Below are positions 15,982 to 22,070 of a stretch of 64,000 nucleotides of DNA, one piece after another (the stretch's first letter is position 1; each line of letters opens with the position of its first letter). The translations under genes and the position numbers were made by a program. The stretch comes from an uncultured Aquimarina sp. (GTDB lineage: Bacteria > Bacteroidota > Bacteroidia > Flavobacteriales > Flavobacteriaceae): contig NZ_CANLOZ010000002.1 in NCBI RefSeq assembly GCF_947492965.1, positions 310,001-374,000 of the forward strand, read 5' to 3'. The notes under the pieces were generated by a model that saw nothing but the letters and a program-made list of their open reading frames with translations, did not search any database and was not told the DNA's origin.

Positions 15982-17535
15982 TTAATTTCTTAATTGTTGT
16001 ATTCTCATGATTAGTCCAATACTTCCAATTATTATTGAACTTATAATGAGCGTAAATATGTACAAAGAGTTATGCTGTAATCCTCCAAAGTAATCCATGA
16101 ACGGGATTTGATTTATATTTCCATAAGTGATAATAAAAAATACAATTTCGAATAGTTTTTTCCCTTTCGTCAAAATACCAGATGTAATTGCTATTAAAAC
16201 AATAAAAATTGCACCAATAATAAGATGTAGTACAGATTGTACGTCCAGTACTATCATATGCTTTATAAGTAAAGGAAGTGCTAATAGTATCATCATTAAT
16301 GCTCCAGCCAATACTTGTGAAACCAGTAGTCTTTTTATGGGTTTATATGAAGTAAAGGCGAAATACTGTACATTATGATGCATTTCTTTAGATGATATTT
16401 CTGATAATCTATGTACTTGTAAAAACCAAAGAATAGGTAACACTATGGTATGTGCAATGGAAATAGGTAATACTGCAAGCAATGTTATACCGATTAAATT
16501 AAGTATCCATAACCATTTTTTGCCTTTGCGATATAGCAGTAGTAGTTCTGTTTTTATCAAAGAATAAATACCATAATTGCTTGTTGATTTTACTAATAAT
16601 GTATGCTTTATTTCATGAGAATTATTTTCTTGTTTATATGAAGAAAATATAGCTTTCTTATTAATCTTATTAGTGGTACGAAATCTATCAAAAAATGGTG
16701 ATATAATGCAAAGCACTAGAAATGCTAATGCACACCATCCGATTCTACTTATTATAAAGGTATTAGGAAATTCAATTCCGTTAAACTCGAATTTTTTATT
16801 TTCAGTTATGTTTCCTAAAACATAGCCTATATTTAGTTCGGTATCATGATCAACAGGTAATAACTCTCTAACGCTCATTTCCATTTGATCCATTACTATT
16901 TTGGTTCCAAAGGGATCTAATAAATATGTATAAGAAGAGCTATCCGAAAACGAAGGGAAAGCCAAATAAGAAAACAAAAAGAAGAATCCTATATTTTGGA
17001 TTATAGAGTATTTCTTAAAAATAACTTCGAAAACTACCGCAATAACTGAAATGCAAAATATTGCTGGGATCGGAATCAATATATATGGAATTATAAATTG
17101 TAAGATTTCAAATGAATACCCTTCATTATATAGAATAAATAATAATATACTCATCAAAAATATAATCACAATAATCGTACTTAGAATTAGAAAATTACTT
17201 ACGAACTTAGAAACTAAATATTTGAAATTAGTAATCGGTGTAGCAGCTGTAATATGCCCAATTTTGGTAATAGTGTCTGTTTTAATTGCACTATTGACCA
17301 AGTAAAATCCAATTAAGGATAAAAAAATACTGGTCATTATTGCAGTAACATATCCAAACCAAGCCGAATTATAAAATCCAACGTAATCTGCTATTCTAAT
17401 TGTAGAATAAGAGGCATTTGGCTCAGGAACAAAAGTGTATGCTATTGCTAAACTAATACAAAGAGTAATTAGAAAGCTATAACTTCTAGTACGCTGTAAA
17501 TAATCGTATTTTATAATATTAATAAATGTTTTCAT
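15982..17535 (-). CDS. ABC transporter permease (ABC-2 type-like)
   Basis: A hydrophobic protein of about 517 residues with roughly a dozen membrane segments in two halves, separated by a charged cytoplasmic segment (about 290-325). The N terminus (M-K-T-F-I-N-I-I-K-Y-D-Y-L-Q-R-T-R-S-Y) is typical of ABC-2 type exporter permeases, with a first helix followed by a large loop. The ATG at 17535 is chosen; the frame can be extended only to a TTG at 17544. It begins 11 nt after the second small peptide gene and shares the operon with the ATPase, so the two should form the transporter. Confidence 0.85.
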   Translation of the reverse strand: MKTFINIIKYDYLQRTRSYSFLITLCISLAIAYTFVPEPNASYSTIRIADYVGFYNSAWFGYVTAIMTSIFLSLIGFYLVNSAIKTDTITKIGHITAATPITNFKYLVSKFVSNFLILSTIIVIIFLMSILLFILYNEGYSFEILQFIIPYILIPIPAIFCISVIAVVFEVIFKKYSIIQNIGFFFLFSYLAFPSFSDSSSYTYLLDPFGTKIVMDQMEMSVRELLPVDHDTELNIGYVLGNITENKKFEFNGIEFPNTFIISRIGWCALAFLVLCIISPFFDRFRTTNKINKKAIFSSYKQENNSHEIKHTLLVKSTSNYGIYSLIKTELLLLYRKGKKWLWILNLIGITLLAVLPISIAHTIVLPILWFLQVHRLSEISSKEMHHNVQYFAFTSYKPIKRLLVSQVLAGALMMILLALPLLIKHMIVLDVQSVLHLIIGAIFIVLIAITSGILTKGKKLFEIVFFIITYGNINQIPFMDYFGGLQHNSLYIFTLIISSIIIGSIGLIMRIQQLRN

Positions 17536-17546
17536 GAGATACAATC

Positions 17547-17666
17547 TTAGTAAGCGTAATGAACTCCTATGTGTACGTTACTGAAAACGATAGACATAAT
17601 TATGAGTATCATAATAGCTACAAGGGTTAATAGTATTGTTGTTTTTTTCTGTGATGATTTTTTCAT
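17547..17666 (-). CDS. 39-residue single-span membrane peptide, copy B
   Basis: An ATG-started frame of 39 codons plus TAA. A basic N terminus (M-K-K-S-S-Q-K-K-T-T) leads into a hydrophobic span of about 18 residues (I-L-L-T-L-V-A-I-M-I-L-I-I-M-S-I-V-F) and a short tail, S-N-V-H-I-G-V-H-Y-A-Y. By the positive-inside rule the tail should face the periplasm. It is identical to the neighbouring peptide at 21 of 39 positions with no gap, and is 11 nt upstream of the permease. Conservation between the copies argues for real coding; the function is unknown (exported signal, bacteriocin-like peptide or transporter subunit are all possible). Confidence 0.75.
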   Translation of the reverse strand: MKKSSQKKTTILLTLVAIMILIIMSIVFSNVHIGVHYAY

Positions 17667-17729
17667 TTTACTAAGTTCTTATTAAGTATAATTGTAGTTT
17701 TATAGATTAAGTATTCTAGGTATTTAATG

Positions 17730-17849
17730 TTAGTAAGCATAATATACTCCTACATGTACGTTCTTTAATATTATAGCGATGATGACTAGAATCATTATGG
17801 TTGTTATTATTATTGATTCGGTCTTTTTTTTGTTTGATGAATTTTTCAT
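17730..17849 (-). CDS. 39-residue single-span membrane peptide, copy A
   Basis: The same length and plan as the next peptide: basic start (M-K-N-S-S-N-K-K-K-T), hydrophobic span (I-I-I-T-T-I-M-I-L-V-I-I-A-I-I-L) and tail K-N-V-H-V-G-V-Y-Y-A-Y. It lies 20 nt behind the ABC ATPase stop and 63 nt ahead of copy B on the same strand. At the DNA level the last ten codons of the two copies are especially similar. This gene and its twin fill what would otherwise look like a 334-nt empty gap inside an operon. Confidence 0.75.
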   Translation of the reverse strand: MKNSSNKKKTESIIITTIMILVIIAIILKNVHVGVYYAY

Positions 17850-17869: not shown

Positions 17870-18733
17870 TTAGTTGATTTTTGTTAAGTATAAATAGGCG
17901 TCTTCTAGATTTGGTGTTTGGGCTATAGAATCCTTGATAGGAATTTCAGAAATGTATCTAACAGCTATTTTTTGTTCTTTTCTAGCGGTGCTAACCACGA
18001 TATTATTTTTCTTAAAGTTATCCAGTTGTTCTTTTGGAATAAGCACTTCAAAAACCTTTTGATCTACTAGTTGAATAAGCTTTTCTTGTGTGTCAAAAGA
18101 CAACAATGATCCGTTTTTCATGATAGCAACCTGATCTGCTATAGTATCTATATCAGATACGATGTGTGATGACAGGATAACAATACATTCTTGTGATAAA
18201 TCAGATATCAAATTTCTAAAACGTACTCTTTCTTCAGGATCTAGTCCAACTGTTGGTTCATCAAAAATGACAACTTTTGGATCATTCAATAAGGTTTGAG
18301 CGATTCCTATTCGTTGTTTCATACCTCCAGAGTAACTTCCAATGGGTTTTTTGGCAGCATCTAATAAGTTTAGACCATACAATAGTTGTTCTATTTTTAG
18401 CTTAATATTTTGATCCGAAATCCCTTTTAATGCAGCTATGTATTGCAAAAATTCAAAAGCATTTAGATTAGGGTATACTCCAAAATCTTGCGGTAAAAAA
18501 CCTAGTTGCTTTCTCATATAATTTGCATCTTTTATAATGTTGTTTTTATTAAGTATGATCACACCTTCGGTAGGTTTGCTGGCAGTCGCAATCATTTTTA
18601 ATAGGGTAGATTTTCCCGCTCCATTAGGTCCTAATAGCCCCAGTATTCCTTTTTCGATATTTATGGAGAAATCTTTTAACCCATATTTGTTTCTACCATA
18701 TTTTTTGGAAACATTCTTTACTTCTAGTCTCAT
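17870..18733 (-). CDS. ABC transporter ATP-binding protein
   Basis: A 287-residue ATPase with Walker A G-P-N-G-A-G-K-S-T at 35-43, Q-loop in L-P-Q-D-F (about 80-84), signature Y-S-G-G-M-K-Q (134-140), Walker B V-V-I-F-D-E-P (154-160) and switch His 190. A C-terminal extension of about 60 residues after the core is usual in CcmA/drug-export type ATPases that pair with ABC-2 permeases. It lies 11 nt after the serine hydrolase and upstream of the two small peptides and the permease. Confidence 0.93.
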   Translation of the reverse strand: MRLEVKNVSKKYGRNKYGLKDFSINIEKGILGLLGPNGAGKSTLLKMIATASKPTEGVIILNKNNIIKDANYMRKQLGFLPQDFGVYPNLNAFEFLQYIAALKGISDQNIKLKIEQLLYGLNLLDAAKKPIGSYSGGMKQRIGIAQTLLNDPKVVIFDEPTVGLDPEERVRFRNLISDLSQECIVILSSHIVSDIDTIADQVAIMKNGSLLSFDTQEKLIQLVDQKVFEVLIPKEQLDNFKKNNIVVSTARKEQKIAVRYISEIPIKDSIAQTPNLEDAYLYLTKIN

Positions 18734-18744
18734 GATCTTTCCGT

Positions 18745-20070
18745 TTATTTGTTTAAACTTACTTTACTGATTGTAGTTGTAAAGCCATTTTGACTAAAAG
18801 ACAAACTATCATGGTTATTCTCTATTTGGGTTAAAACAACTCCTACAGTAGTATCATAGAGTGATGTTTCATCCTTTTGTGATAGTTCGCTTGTAACCCC
18901 TTGTTCTTCGGATACCAAATACATTTTATTATCCTCCAATGTTATTTTTAAGGTTAAATTCGCTTCTTTAAGTAAATACGTACCTGTATATTTTTTGAAA
19001 TTATCAAGATTGATACTTTTAAAATTTTCTATGGGAGTATCGTTTATATAAGCTAGTAAATCATTTGTTATCGCTTTTTTGAATGGAATTGTTTTACAAT
19101 TAGTAAATGCTAAGTATAGATCTTTGGTATTCGGATTATATTGATTTCTAAATGCATATCCTATATTATTTCCTCCATGTCCGTAATAGGTAACGCCATC
19201 AACATTGAATTTAAATAATCCTAAACCATATTGTTCATTTCCAGATTCCATCATCATTTTCAGAGTTTCTTTTTTTAGTAATTTTTCTGTTTCAAAAAGA
19301 GATTCATAGAATATCTGCATATCGTTTAATGTTGAAGCAATACTACCAGCAGCATAGGCGATATTTGCAAAATAGCGATAGTCCAAATATTCGGTTACAT
19401 CCTTGTCTTGAAAATATGGTGTTGCCAAATTTGGAAGATGTTTGTGTACATATGGATAGGAATTTTTCATCTGTAAAGGAGTGAAAATTCGCTCTCTTAA
19501 TAAGTCAAAATAATTCTGGTCTGTTACTTTTTCTATAATTTTTCCTAATAAAAAATAATTCGTATTACAGTAATCAAACGAACCAATCATTTTTGGATCA
19601 TTCTTTTCTACCTGATCTAGTAAATTTGCGTTGTATAATTCATCATTTTTTCCATAGAAAATATCTACAACGTTTTTGCCTATTACTTCATCTAAACCAC
19701 TTTCATGAGTTAGTAAGGACTTTATTGTTAATGAACCATCTACATTTTTAATGGGAGTGAGATATGTTCCAATACTATCAGTAATTTTTAGATTTCCCTT
19801 CTCATATTCCTGAAGTATCAATATCGCAGTAAAGGTTTTGGTAGCACTACCAATATTAAAAACACTATTTGCAGTAAGGTTATAGTCACCAAGACTTAAG
19901 GTTTCAGTTTTATTCTTCTTATTGGTAAGAATTGCAATTCCTTTATGCTGTTCTTTTAAAATAGTATCATACTTTGTAGAAATTACCTTGATATCATTTG
20001 TTTGACTATATCCGATGTGTTTGATAAAGAAGAGAGCTAATAGAATTATTAAGTACTGTAAAGTTTTCAT
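18745..20070 (-). CDS. Serine hydrolase (class C beta-lactamase-like fold)
   Basis: A secreted or membrane-anchored hydrolase with N-terminal signal (about 1-22). It has the active-site triad motifs of family S12: S-A-T-K at 75-78, Y-C-N at 167-169, and H-G-G-N at 298-301. About 100 residues follow as a small C-terminal beta domain of the kind found in D-aminopeptidase/esterase-type members. The activity is probably on a peptide or ester rather than beta-lactams. It opens the operon with the ABC transporter and the two 39-residue peptides and is divergent from a LytS/LytTR pair, so processing of a small peptide is a tempting but untested idea. Confidence 0.9.
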   Translation of the reverse strand: MKTLQYLIILLALFFIKHIGYSQTNDIKVISTKYDTILKEQHKGIAILTNKKNKTETLSLGDYNLTANSVFNIGSATKTFTAILILQEYEKGNLKITDSIGTYLTPIKNVDGSLTIKSLLTHESGLDEVIGKNVVDIFYGKNDELYNANLLDQVEKNDPKMIGSFDYCNTNYFLLGKIIEKVTDQNYFDLLRERIFTPLQMKNSYPYVHKHLPNLATPYFQDKDVTEYLDYRYFANIAYAAGSIASTLNDMQIFYESLFETEKLLKKETLKMMMESGNEQYGLGLFKFNVDGVTYYGHGGNNIGYAFRNQYNPNTKDLYLAFTNCKTIPFKKAITNDLLAYINDTPIENFKSINLDNFKKYTGTYLLKEANLTLKITLEDNKMYLVSEEQGVTSELSQKDETSLYDTTVGVVLTQIENNHDSLSFSQNGFTTTISKVSLNK

Positions 20071-20286: not shown

Positions 20287-21270
20287 ATGGTAACAAAATT
20301 TGATGCTTGGATAGACAATAAAATAATACAGAACATTATTATATGGTTGTTTTTATTGATCATCTTTATCATGGTCATTCAAGCAGATAATAGATTCTTA
20401 GTATCTATTGTACTTATTGGCTTTATAATGCCACCGATATATTTAAACAATCTAAAAATCTTACCTTTATTTTTTACTAAGAAACGTTCTTTAGGAATTA
20501 CATTTTTTATATTAAATATTTTAGTTTTTACACTTTTGGGAGTATCCCTTTTAAGTGATTTCTTCGAAAAGTTTCAATGGAAAATGTTGTTGAATGTATT
20601 TGGTGCGGTTTTATTAATAATTCTGTTTGGTACCGCATTAAAACTGGCAAGAGATAGTTTTTATAGAAGACAAGAAGAAAAAGAAGCAGAATTAAAGTTA
20701 TTAAAAGCACAACTAAACCCACATTTTTTATTCAATACACTTAACAATCTATATGGGTTGTCGGTAATAAAATCAGAAAAGCTTCCAGATTTAATGTTGC
20801 AACTTTCAGATTTATTACGATATAGTCTTTATGAAACTAAAGAGACCTTTGTTCCGTTAGACAAGGAGATTCAATATCTTAGAAATTACATATCACTAGA
20901 ACAGATTAGATTAGAAGATAAGGCAGATATTCAATTAGATATAAAAGGATATGACTCGGCTAACAGAATAATTGCTCCGATGTTATTAATAGTTTTTGTA
21001 GAAAACGCATTTAAGCATTTAGGAGTATTAGAAGATACAAAGAGTATCGTTTCCGTTTCTATAGAAATAGAGGAGAACTCTATTGTTTTTAAATGTTCAA
21101 ATACAATAGATACCATAATCGTTCCGGAAACCGATATAGAAAAAGGCAAAAGTGGTATTGGTTTACAGAATGCAAAAAAACGTTTAGATTTGATATATCC
21201 AGAAAAGCATGCATTACAAATTAAGCAGGATAACGGTTTTTATATTGTTGAATTAACCCTAGATGTATAG
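20287..21270 (+). CDS. LytS/YpdA-type sensor histidine kinase (first pair)
   Basis: A 327-residue kinase of the His_kinase (PF06580) type. Four membrane segments occupy about residues 14-117, followed by a helix. The phospho-acceptor region Q-L-N-P-H-F-L-F-N-T-L-N-N-L has His 146, and a short ATPase domain carries F-V-E-N-A-F-K-H and G-I-G-L-Q-N-A-K-K-R-L. The sensing part is only membrane helices with very short loops, which suits a hydrophobic ligand or a membrane protein partner. It is transcribed divergently from the serine hydrolase/ABC/peptide operon, with 216 nt between, and its regulator follows. Confidence 0.92.
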   Translation: MVTKFDAWIDNKIIQNIIIWLFLLIIFIMVIQADNRFLVSIVLIGFIMPPIYLNNLKILPLFFTKKRSLGITFFILNILVFTLLGVSLLSDFFEKFQWKMLLNVFGAVLLIILFGTALKLARDSFYRRQEEKEAELKLLKAQLNPHFLFNTLNNLYGLSVIKSEKLPDLMLQLSDLLRYSLYETKETFVPLDKEIQYLRNYISLEQIRLEDKADIQLDIKGYDSANRIIAPMLLIVFVENAFKHLGVLEDTKSIVSVSIEIEENSIVFKCSNTIDTIIVPETDIEKGKSGIGLQNAKKRLDLIYPEKHALQIKQDNGFYIVELTLDV

Positions 21271-21362
21271 CGAAATCATCTGAATAAAGCTGTTAATTAT
21301 AATTCGTAAGTGTTTCCGTAAAATGATTAAACAATAAATTGTAAAGAGAATAAAATAAATAC

Positions 21363-22070
21363 ATGAAAACATTACAATGTTTAATAGCAGATGATGAACC
21401 GATTGCGCGCCAGATAATAGAAAGCTATATCAAAGAAATACCCTATTTAGAGCTTGTTGCTACTTGCAAGAATGCTTTCGAAGTAATGAGCTATTTACAA
21501 AGTAATTCTGTAGATATATTGTTCTTAGATATCAATATGCCAAAACTTTCTGGTATTAGTCTGTTAAAGACAATGCAACAAAAACCTAATGTTATTATCA
21601 CAACTGCTTATCCAGAATATGCTGTAGAAGGATTCACTCTTTCGGTTACTGATTATCTGCTAAAACCATTTTCATTAGAACGATTTTTACAAGCTGTTGG
21701 CAAAGTAGTGCAAGCTACACCTATTCAACAAGATACTATCGTAGTAGAGAAGGAGAAAAAAGCAAGTGTTGTTTATGTAAAAAGTGATAAAAAGATTATT
21801 AAATTAGATGTAGACAGTATCTATTATATTGAAGCTTACGGTAATTATATAAAGATCTATACGGATCAAATGATTTTAACACCAGTGACATTATCTGATT
21901 TTTTAGAAAAGTTGTCAGGTGATTTTGTAAGAACACATAAATCATTCGTAGTAAATTTTAACAAGTTAAAAATGATTGATGGGAATCAAATAATACTGCA
22001 GAATGATAGTAAATTACCGATTAGTAAGTCATATAGGAAATCGGTTTTAAGCAAAATTGATGAAGTATAA
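21363..22070 (+). CDS. LytTR response regulator (first pair)
   Basis: A receiver domain (about 4-120; acidic pocket D10/D11, phospho-acceptor D56 in F-L-D-I-N-M-P, K-P-F near 105) is followed by a LytTR DNA-binding domain (about 137-235; Y-Y-I-E-A-Y-G-N-Y-I-K-I-Y and F-V-R-T-H-K-S-F-V-V-N). It lies 92 nt behind the kinase. LytTR regulators bind paired direct repeats; no such pair is obvious in the divergent gap at 20071-20286. The likely target is the neighbouring minus-strand operon. Confidence 0.93.
   Translation: MKTLQCLIADDEPIARQIIESYIKEIPYLELVATCKNAFEVMSYLQSNSVDILFLDINMPKLSGISLLKTMQQKPNVIITTAYPEYAVEGFTLSVTDYLLKPFSLERFLQAVGKVVQATPIQQDTIVVEKEKKASVVYVKSDKKIIKLDVDSIYYIEAYGNYIKIYTDQMILTPVTLSDFLEKLSGDFVRTHKSFVVNFNKLKMIDGNQIILQNDSKLPISKSYRKSVLSKIDEV

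What the first reader, a model, noticed from the sequence alone, without database searches (positions are those of the whole stretch)
17547..17849. Tandem pair of 39-residue membrane peptides hidden in an ABC transporter operon
The gap between the ABC ATPase and permease genes codes for two peptides of exactly 39 residues, identical at 21 positions without gaps. Each has a basic N terminus, one hydrophobic span and a C-terminal tail N-V-H-[IV]-G-V-[HY]-Y-A-Y. The tail is the best conserved part, in protein and DNA, while the span varies in a hydrophobic-preserving way, as expected for selected coding sequence. Tandem short peptides beside an exporter, a secreted hydrolase and a LytS/LytTR pair recall peptide pheromone or bacteriocin loci, but no leader of a known class (such as a double-glycine leader) is present.
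Basis: partly seen in the sequence, partly recalled or inferred. Interest (0 to 1): 0.85.

Follow-up and report, generated by a model that had tools for sequence, protein, structure and literature searches.

The report
Tiny membrane proteins in exporter operon
Two real 39-residue membrane proteins sit inside an exporter operon of a marine bacterium; related species keep the same protein at the same spot, so it is probably a small helper part of the exporter rather than a chance reading frame or a signalling peptide.

Summary
Between the ABC ATPase and permease genes lie two minus-strand ORFs of exactly 39 codons, identical at 21 of 39 positions. They are genes: a profile search finds the peptide in 13 of 66 genomes of the genus, Aquimarina. 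In 12 it lies between the orthologous ATPase and permease genes, always 39 codons without stops or indels; only the window has two copies. It is under purifying selection. No full-length relative was found outside the genus in the samples searched. The 16 peptide-less orthologous operons that I read and 23 distinct paralogous ABC modules lack it.

Best reading: a lineage-specific single-span membrane protein (N terminus in, conserved tail out) acting as accessory or regulatory subunit of this ABC-2 exporter, working like VraH or AcrZ. Conserved tail, no double-glycine leader and an optional hydrolase gene argue against a pheromone or bacteriocin locus. One genome carries a stand-alone copy, so the tie to the exporter is strong but not absolute. 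A weak likeness between the tail and an invariant permease loop is a lead only.

The parts
17730..17849 (-). pepA: 39-aa single-span membrane protein, first copy in operon order, 20 nt after the ATPase stop
   Evidence: 79% identical to the single copy of G015 (A. litoralis)
17547..17666 (-). pepB: second 39-aa copy, more diverged, 63 nt after pepA and 11 nt before the permease ATG
17870..18733 (-). ABC ATPase (PF00005), 287 aa
   Evidence: orthologues
15982..17535 (-). ABC-2 type permease, 517 aa, ATG at 17535; best Pfam match ABC2_membrane_3, 30.6 bits, just under its cut-off of 31.6
17359..17388 (-). codons of permease residues 50-59 (DYVGFYNSAW), in the first predicted outer loop; G53, Y55, N56 and W59 are invariant in 26 orthologues; the peptide tail resembles this segment
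18745..20070 (-). serine hydrolase of the PF00144 fold, with a signal-peptide-like N terminus (by eye); optional member of the operon
20287..21270 (+). membrane histidine kinase (PF06580), divergent
21363..22070 (+). LytTR response regulator

Best explanation
The interval encodes two copies of a genuine, lineage-specific small membrane protein. Shown: conserved length, frame, position and protein-level selection. Inferred: it sits in the inner membrane with the lysine-rich N terminus in the cytoplasm and the short C-terminal tail (VH[IV]G[VI]Y[YND]A[YH] in most copies) outside, and acts as an accessory or regulatory subunit of the ABC-2 exporter made from the same operon: its helix packs against the permease and its tail docks on the permease's outer face, tuning, stabilising or giving specificity to an exporter that the adjacent kinase/LytTR pair probably controls. 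The second copy in the window is a diverged duplicate that has kept the same features.
For: In 12 of the 13 genomes that have it, it lies between ATPase and permease, 2-20 nt after the ATPase stop; the peptide next to the permease ends 10-13 nt before its ATG in 11 operons and 103 nt in A. litoralis. Exactly 39 codons in all 13 operon copies. Purifying selection: pooled pN/pS 0.44, against 0.16 for the ATPase and 0.30 for the permease. Tied to the ATPase-permease pair and not to the hydrolase, not found in that place in 6 of 12 operons. Absent from 23 distinct paralogous ABC modules. All 12 hits of the tail's DNA pattern in the genus genomes are ends of this peptide (places as; G000 was not in that sample; the 5 hits outside the genus lie in frames unlike it). 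Net charge of the N side +3 to +6, of the C side 0 to +2, span mean hydropathy 2.6-3.2, which by the positive-inside rule fits N-in, C-out. AlphaFold gives one helix, 5-38. No RNA structure that would suggest a cis-acting role.
Against: G057 carries a stand-alone 38-aa copy with no ABC gene beside it (nearest about 4 kb away, distantly related) and no close ATPase orthologue. Sixteen orthologous operons, two of them from other genera, do without it, so the transporter as such does not need it. No interaction could be tested. The tree puts peptide operons in two groups (10 and 2); one clade is not rejected, p-AU 0.235. One close pair has dN/dS 1.07, and the peptide is less constrained than its neighbours.
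Confidence: 0.52

Rival explanations
1. Exported peptide: the small protein is the substrate of the neighbouring exporter (pheromone, bacteriocin, or a leaderless peptide like the phenol-soluble modulins exported by Pmt) and the kinase/LytTR pair senses it.
For: Gene inside an exporter operon next to a kinase/LytTR pair; the permease model's top fold matches include PmtCD, weakly (E 0.09), and the ATPase scores 105 bits against the PmtA model; tandem copies in the window; a stand-alone copy in G057.
Against: No double-glycine leader and no obvious signal-peptidase site (by eye, no predictor was run); ATPase without peptidase domain; PmtA score far under its cut-off of 350 and ranked 25th among ATPase models; span almost uniformly hydrophobic with a low moment of 0.13-0.61 per residue (no modulin run as yardstick); tail conserved across species; 16 orthologous exporters have no such peptide.
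Confidence: 0.15
2. Autonomous small hydrophobic peptide (toxin-like or membrane-stress peptide) that landed in this operon and is co-expressed with it without working on the transporter.
For: Stand-alone copy in G057 at a site that looks rearranged, beside a C-terminal piece of a molybdopterin oxidoreductase gene; size and hydrophobicity recall type I toxins (from memory, not tested).
Against: 12 of 13 genomes keep it in one operon slot over large divergence; G057 is a single case and may be a stranded copy.
Confidence: 0.13
3. Translation-arrest leader peptide: the conserved C terminus stalls the ribosome to control the permease gene just downstream.
For: N-terminal membrane signal, conserved C terminus next to the stop, membrane-protein gene 10-13 nt downstream in 11 of 12 operons.
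Against: Only about 11 residues follow the span, whereas the search for monitoring substrates in PMC7897499 required over 40 (passages); no consensus RNA structure in 9 operons and no fold beyond shuffles in 6 sequences; A. litoralis has 103 nt between peptide and permease; pepA of the window is followed by pepB; the G057 copy has no gene close downstream on its strand.
Confidence: 0.07
4. Chance ORFs in an intergenic gap.
For: Short, AT-rich, simple composition.
Against: Conserved frame and length in 12 operons, homologue in a 13th genome, protein-level selection.
Confidence: 0.01

Closest known systems
VraH of the Staphylococcus aureus VraDEH ABC transporter (passages of PMC5786555)
   Same: Small transmembrane protein that belongs to an ABC transporter controlled by a two-component system; reported there as needed for gallidermin but not nisin or bacitracin resistance.
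   Different: Different phylum and transporter; VraH has a positively charged C terminus with a YYKRREEKGK motif, which this peptide lacks.
AcrZ on AcrB (abstract and outline of PMC7267776; passages of PMC10710835)
   Same: Single-helix protein of 49 residues that binds and modulates an exporter.
   Different: RND pump, not ABC; sequence likeness was not tested.
MgtS, MgtR, MgtU, MntS (passages of PMC10710835)
   Same: Proteins of 28-42 residues that act on transporters, by inhibition or by changing their turnover.
   Different: Ion transporters of E. coli and Salmonella; homology not tested.
LucB of the Mce1 ABC lipid transporter (passages of PMC9882608)
   Same: Lineage-restricted accessory membrane subunit of an ABC transporter that had gone unnoticed.
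   Different: At least four transmembrane helices (TM2-TM4 are named) and a C-terminal extension, not one span.
Monitoring substrates SecM, MifM, VemP (passages of PMC7897499)
   Same: N-terminal localisation signal, conserved C terminus, gene upstream of a membrane-protein gene, narrow phylogenetic spread.
   Different: Search criteria there: 80-200 residues, over 40 residues after the signal, upstream of sec or yidC genes.

Membership tests
Small single-span accessory proteins of transporters (VraH/AcrZ kind) | Under about 50 residues with one membrane span | tested here: met
   39 residues (38 in G057), one hydrophobic span, one predicted helix
Small single-span accessory proteins of transporters (VraH/AcrZ kind) | Genetically tied to one transporter | tested here: met
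   12 of 13 genomes in the same ATPase-permease gap; exception G057
Small single-span accessory proteins of transporters (VraH/AcrZ kind) | Binds the transporter and changes its activity | not testable with these tools
   only single-chain predictions were possible
VraH itself | Positively charged C terminus with YYKRREEKGK motif | tested here: not met
   tail is [KNQEGS][KN][VAIM]H[IV]G[VI][YH][YND]A[YH], last residue missing in G057; VraH motif
Double-glycine bacteriocins/pheromones | GG leader | tested here: not met
   no GG in any of the 13 copies
Double-glycine bacteriocins/pheromones | ABC exporter with peptidase domain | tested here: not met
   ATPase matches ABC_tran and related ATPase models only
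Phenol-soluble modulins with Pmt exporter | Amphipathic helix | tested here: inconclusive
   moment 0.13-0.61 per residue over the span; low, but no modulin was run as yardstick
Phenol-soluble modulins with Pmt exporter | PmtA-type ATPase | tested here: not met
   105.1 bits against a cut-off of 350
Sec/YidC monitoring-substrate arrest peptides | Over 40 residues between signal and C terminus | tested here: not met
   about 11 residues; criterion
Sec/YidC monitoring-substrate arrest peptides | Ribosome stalling | not testable with these tools
   needs in vitro translation

The most novel reading that the evidence does not exclude
The tail is a molecular imitation of the partner permease's own invariant outer-loop segment ([DN][YH][VL]GxYN[SA]xW in most orthologues): the small protein would occupy or pair with the site that this loop uses, a detached copy of a transporter element that gates the transporter. 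The tail profile's best window in the permease profile is exactly this loop (score 7.8, next -2.9).
Probability: 0.1. Interest if true: 0.65.

Novelty: new member of a known kind. Interest (0 to 1): 0.42.

Why it matters
It adds a family of sub-40-residue proteins, without a match in NCBIfam (13 copies) or Pfam (3 copies), inside a Bacteroidota exporter operon with a kinase/LytTR pair. Because orthologous operons exist with none, one and two copies, plus one stand-alone copy, the genus is a ready-made natural comparison for what a small membrane protein adds to an ABC exporter.

Tried and rejected
Chance ORFs: rejected by conservation. RNA element instead of protein: RNAalifold finds no pairs in 9 operons; 6 single folds lie near their shuffles, z -0.75 to 1.30. 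Split-off piece of the permease: the permease aligns along its length in operons with and without the peptide (several of the fetched pieces are cut at the C-terminal end). Similar peptides in other ABC modules: none in 23 distinct paralogous modules (26 rows, of which one cut off by the locus end and two duplicates; one 29-codon ORF in L103 is unlike it). Wider family: 397 family, 296 order, 345 class and 60 further genomes (overlapping samples, few per genus) gave nothing full-length; best other E-values 0.0044, 0.0013 and 2.5e-4, all partial, some inside long frames or with stops (one search held no positive control). Genome contigs: 194 pattern stretches, 7 relatives, all Aquimarina; viral contigs: 133 stretches, none. 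PHROGs: 1 of 13 copies weakly matches an unnamed family, E 0.0041, not followed. Solved structures: no sequence match for peptide or permease. Order of duplication against the split from A. litoralis: unresolved. Tail mimicry: hhalign P-value 0.006, but probability only 6%; column-permuted tail profiles reach the score in 13 of 2000 and 41 of 5000. Against it: the kinase also gives 141 of 5000; single-sequence ranks are 9 to 24 of about 18,900 window positions; 697 of 2000 permuted profiles also score best in this loop; AlphaFold makes the peptide tail helical, while the permease segment is a short hairpin. So a lead only. Two script readings were set aside: one search read minus-strand loci on the wrong strand, and the window's own row is out of frame; window spacers are.

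Full report
What is there. On the minus strand the operon runs hydrolase (18745-20070), ABC ATPase (17870-18733), pepA (17730-17849), pepB (17547-17666), ABC-2 permease (15982-17535), with a kinase and a LytTR regulator divergent from it (20287-22070). pepA and pepB are both 39 residues and share 21, and 79 of 117 nucleotides.

Is it a gene. With pepA alone as query, 12 of 66 genus genomes match at E up to 0.01. With the 13-row profile A2, 21 of 66 match at E up to 0.02; 13 of these are at E below 1e-9 (the 12 and G057), and 8 genomes have only weak partial matches (E 0.0026 or worse) that I do not count. In the 12, the gene lies between the orthologous ATPase and permease and is 39 codons long without indel or stop. 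Invariant residues in A2 are M1, K2, K8, H32, G34, A38. Third-position excess: 1 of 20000 shuffles as high. Pooled pN/pS over all 78 pairs of 13 copies is 0.45 (N terminus 0.28, span 0.63, tail 0.32); over 66 pairs of one copy per genome 0.44, against 0.16 for the ATPase and 0.30 for the permease. Of ten close pairs nine gave dN/dS 0 to 0.41 and G049/G051 gave 1.07, on few synonymous differences.

Distribution. Twenty-nine genus genomes hold a close ATPase orthologue (56% identity or more): 12 with the peptide and 17 without. I read the gap in 14 of those 17 and in two orthologues from other genera, 16 in all, and in each the permease follows the ATPase directly; G009, G017 and G018 were not read there. 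On the ATPase+permease tree (28 rows) the peptide operons form groups of 10 and 2, two changes; one clade is not rejected (p-AU 0.235). Outside the genus no full-length relative turned up, with the limits that the samples take few genomes per genus and that the pattern scan would have missed a form such as that of G057.

The exception. G057 has a 38-residue copy ending HIGVYNA, alone: convergent with a DUF1569-like gene and divergent from a 118-residue frame with a molydopterin-binding domain. In the relatives G020 and G052 the DUF1569-like gene is followed by another gene and by what looks like the start of a molybdopterin oxidoreductase gene (that it is the same gene is my reading), so the G057 site seems rearranged. 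G057's best listed ABC ATPase match is 41% identical, and no relic of the operon's ATPase or permease adjoins the copy (the ABC match there is a distant one about 5 kb away). This is the strongest fact against a strict exporter subunit.

Anatomy and likely working. N side +3 to +6, an 18-residue span of mean hydropathy 2.6-3.2, C side 0 to +2: by the positive-inside rule N-in, C-out. AlphaFold gives a single helix 5-38 (mean pLDDT 81). The permease model (mean pLDDT 76) has helix 19-34, a small hairpin 46-48/51-53, helix 57-80, which I read as TM1, outer loop and TM2; its top fold matches, none at E below 0.001, include the ABC-2 permeases PmtCD and NosFY but also MATE transporters. G53, Y55, N56 and W59 of that loop are invariant in 26 orthologues. 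The peptide tail resembles the loop, with the reservations given under tried and rejected. I infer an accessory or regulatory subunit. The tie is to the ATPase-permease pair: the hydrolase gene is not found between kinase and ATPase in 6 of the 12 operons, and 23 distinct paralogous modules, several with their own kinase/regulator pair, have no such peptide.

Rivals. Export as a pheromone or bacteriocin lacks a double-glycine leader and a peptidase domain and is at odds with a conserved tail. An arrest leader fails the length criterion, shows no RNA structure and is separated from the permease by 103 nt in A. litoralis. An autonomous hydrophobic peptide that merely rides in the operon remains possible because of G057.

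Literature. In the rows shown by searches of an open-access library (several lists were capped) no title or abstract start describes this family; subscription papers are not held. I saw passages of PMC5786555, PMC10710835, PMC9882608 and PMC7897499, and the abstract and outline of PMC7267776; the rest only as search listings. The comparison with type I toxins is recalled.

Verdict. A real small-protein family of a known kind, most likely an exporter accessory protein; mechanism inferred, not shown.

Noticed in passing
L074:8132-8226 (A. litoralis, G015), L161-L177; not found in the window: The spacer between peptide and permease in A. litoralis is a dispersed element of about 95 bp that begins ATGAAATAAGCCATAACA (with variants) and ends at the start codon of the next gene: 10 places in G015 and 9 in G000 at E up to 1e-3; in 14 of 17 fetched copies, and in L074, it ends on or at the ATG of an ORF of at least 35 codons, by eye of unrelated functions. 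It looks like insertion at ATGAAA start codons with a duplicated target and a Met-Lys-stop mini-frame. No match to such an element in Rfam in 3 loci, no consensus RNA structure; a sequence model finds it in 2 of 48 sources, not in the window.
   Followed up: partly
L127:9357-9470 (G057): Stand-alone 38-residue copy of the peptide at a seemingly rearranged site beside a C-terminal piece of a molybdopterin oxidoreductase gene.
   Followed up: yes
window 17359-17388 and 25 orthologues: The first outer loop of the permease holds an invariant GxYNxxW segment, function unknown.
   Followed up: partly
L101, L102 (G091, G213): Two other genera of the family carry this operon (ATPase 71-72% identical) without peptide, and their rows fall among the Aquimarina rows of the tree, weakly supported in detail, which suggests transfer of the operon between genera.
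   Followed up: partly
window 18745-20070: The serine hydrolase is an optional operon member: present in 6 of 12 peptide operons, not found in that place in the other 6; 1 of 7 hydrolase pieces in relatives holds a stop sign.
   Followed up: partly
L173, downstream of the element: A dispersed-element copy precedes a 35-codon ORF for a hydrophobic peptide, by eye unlike the peptides of this finding.
   Followed up: no
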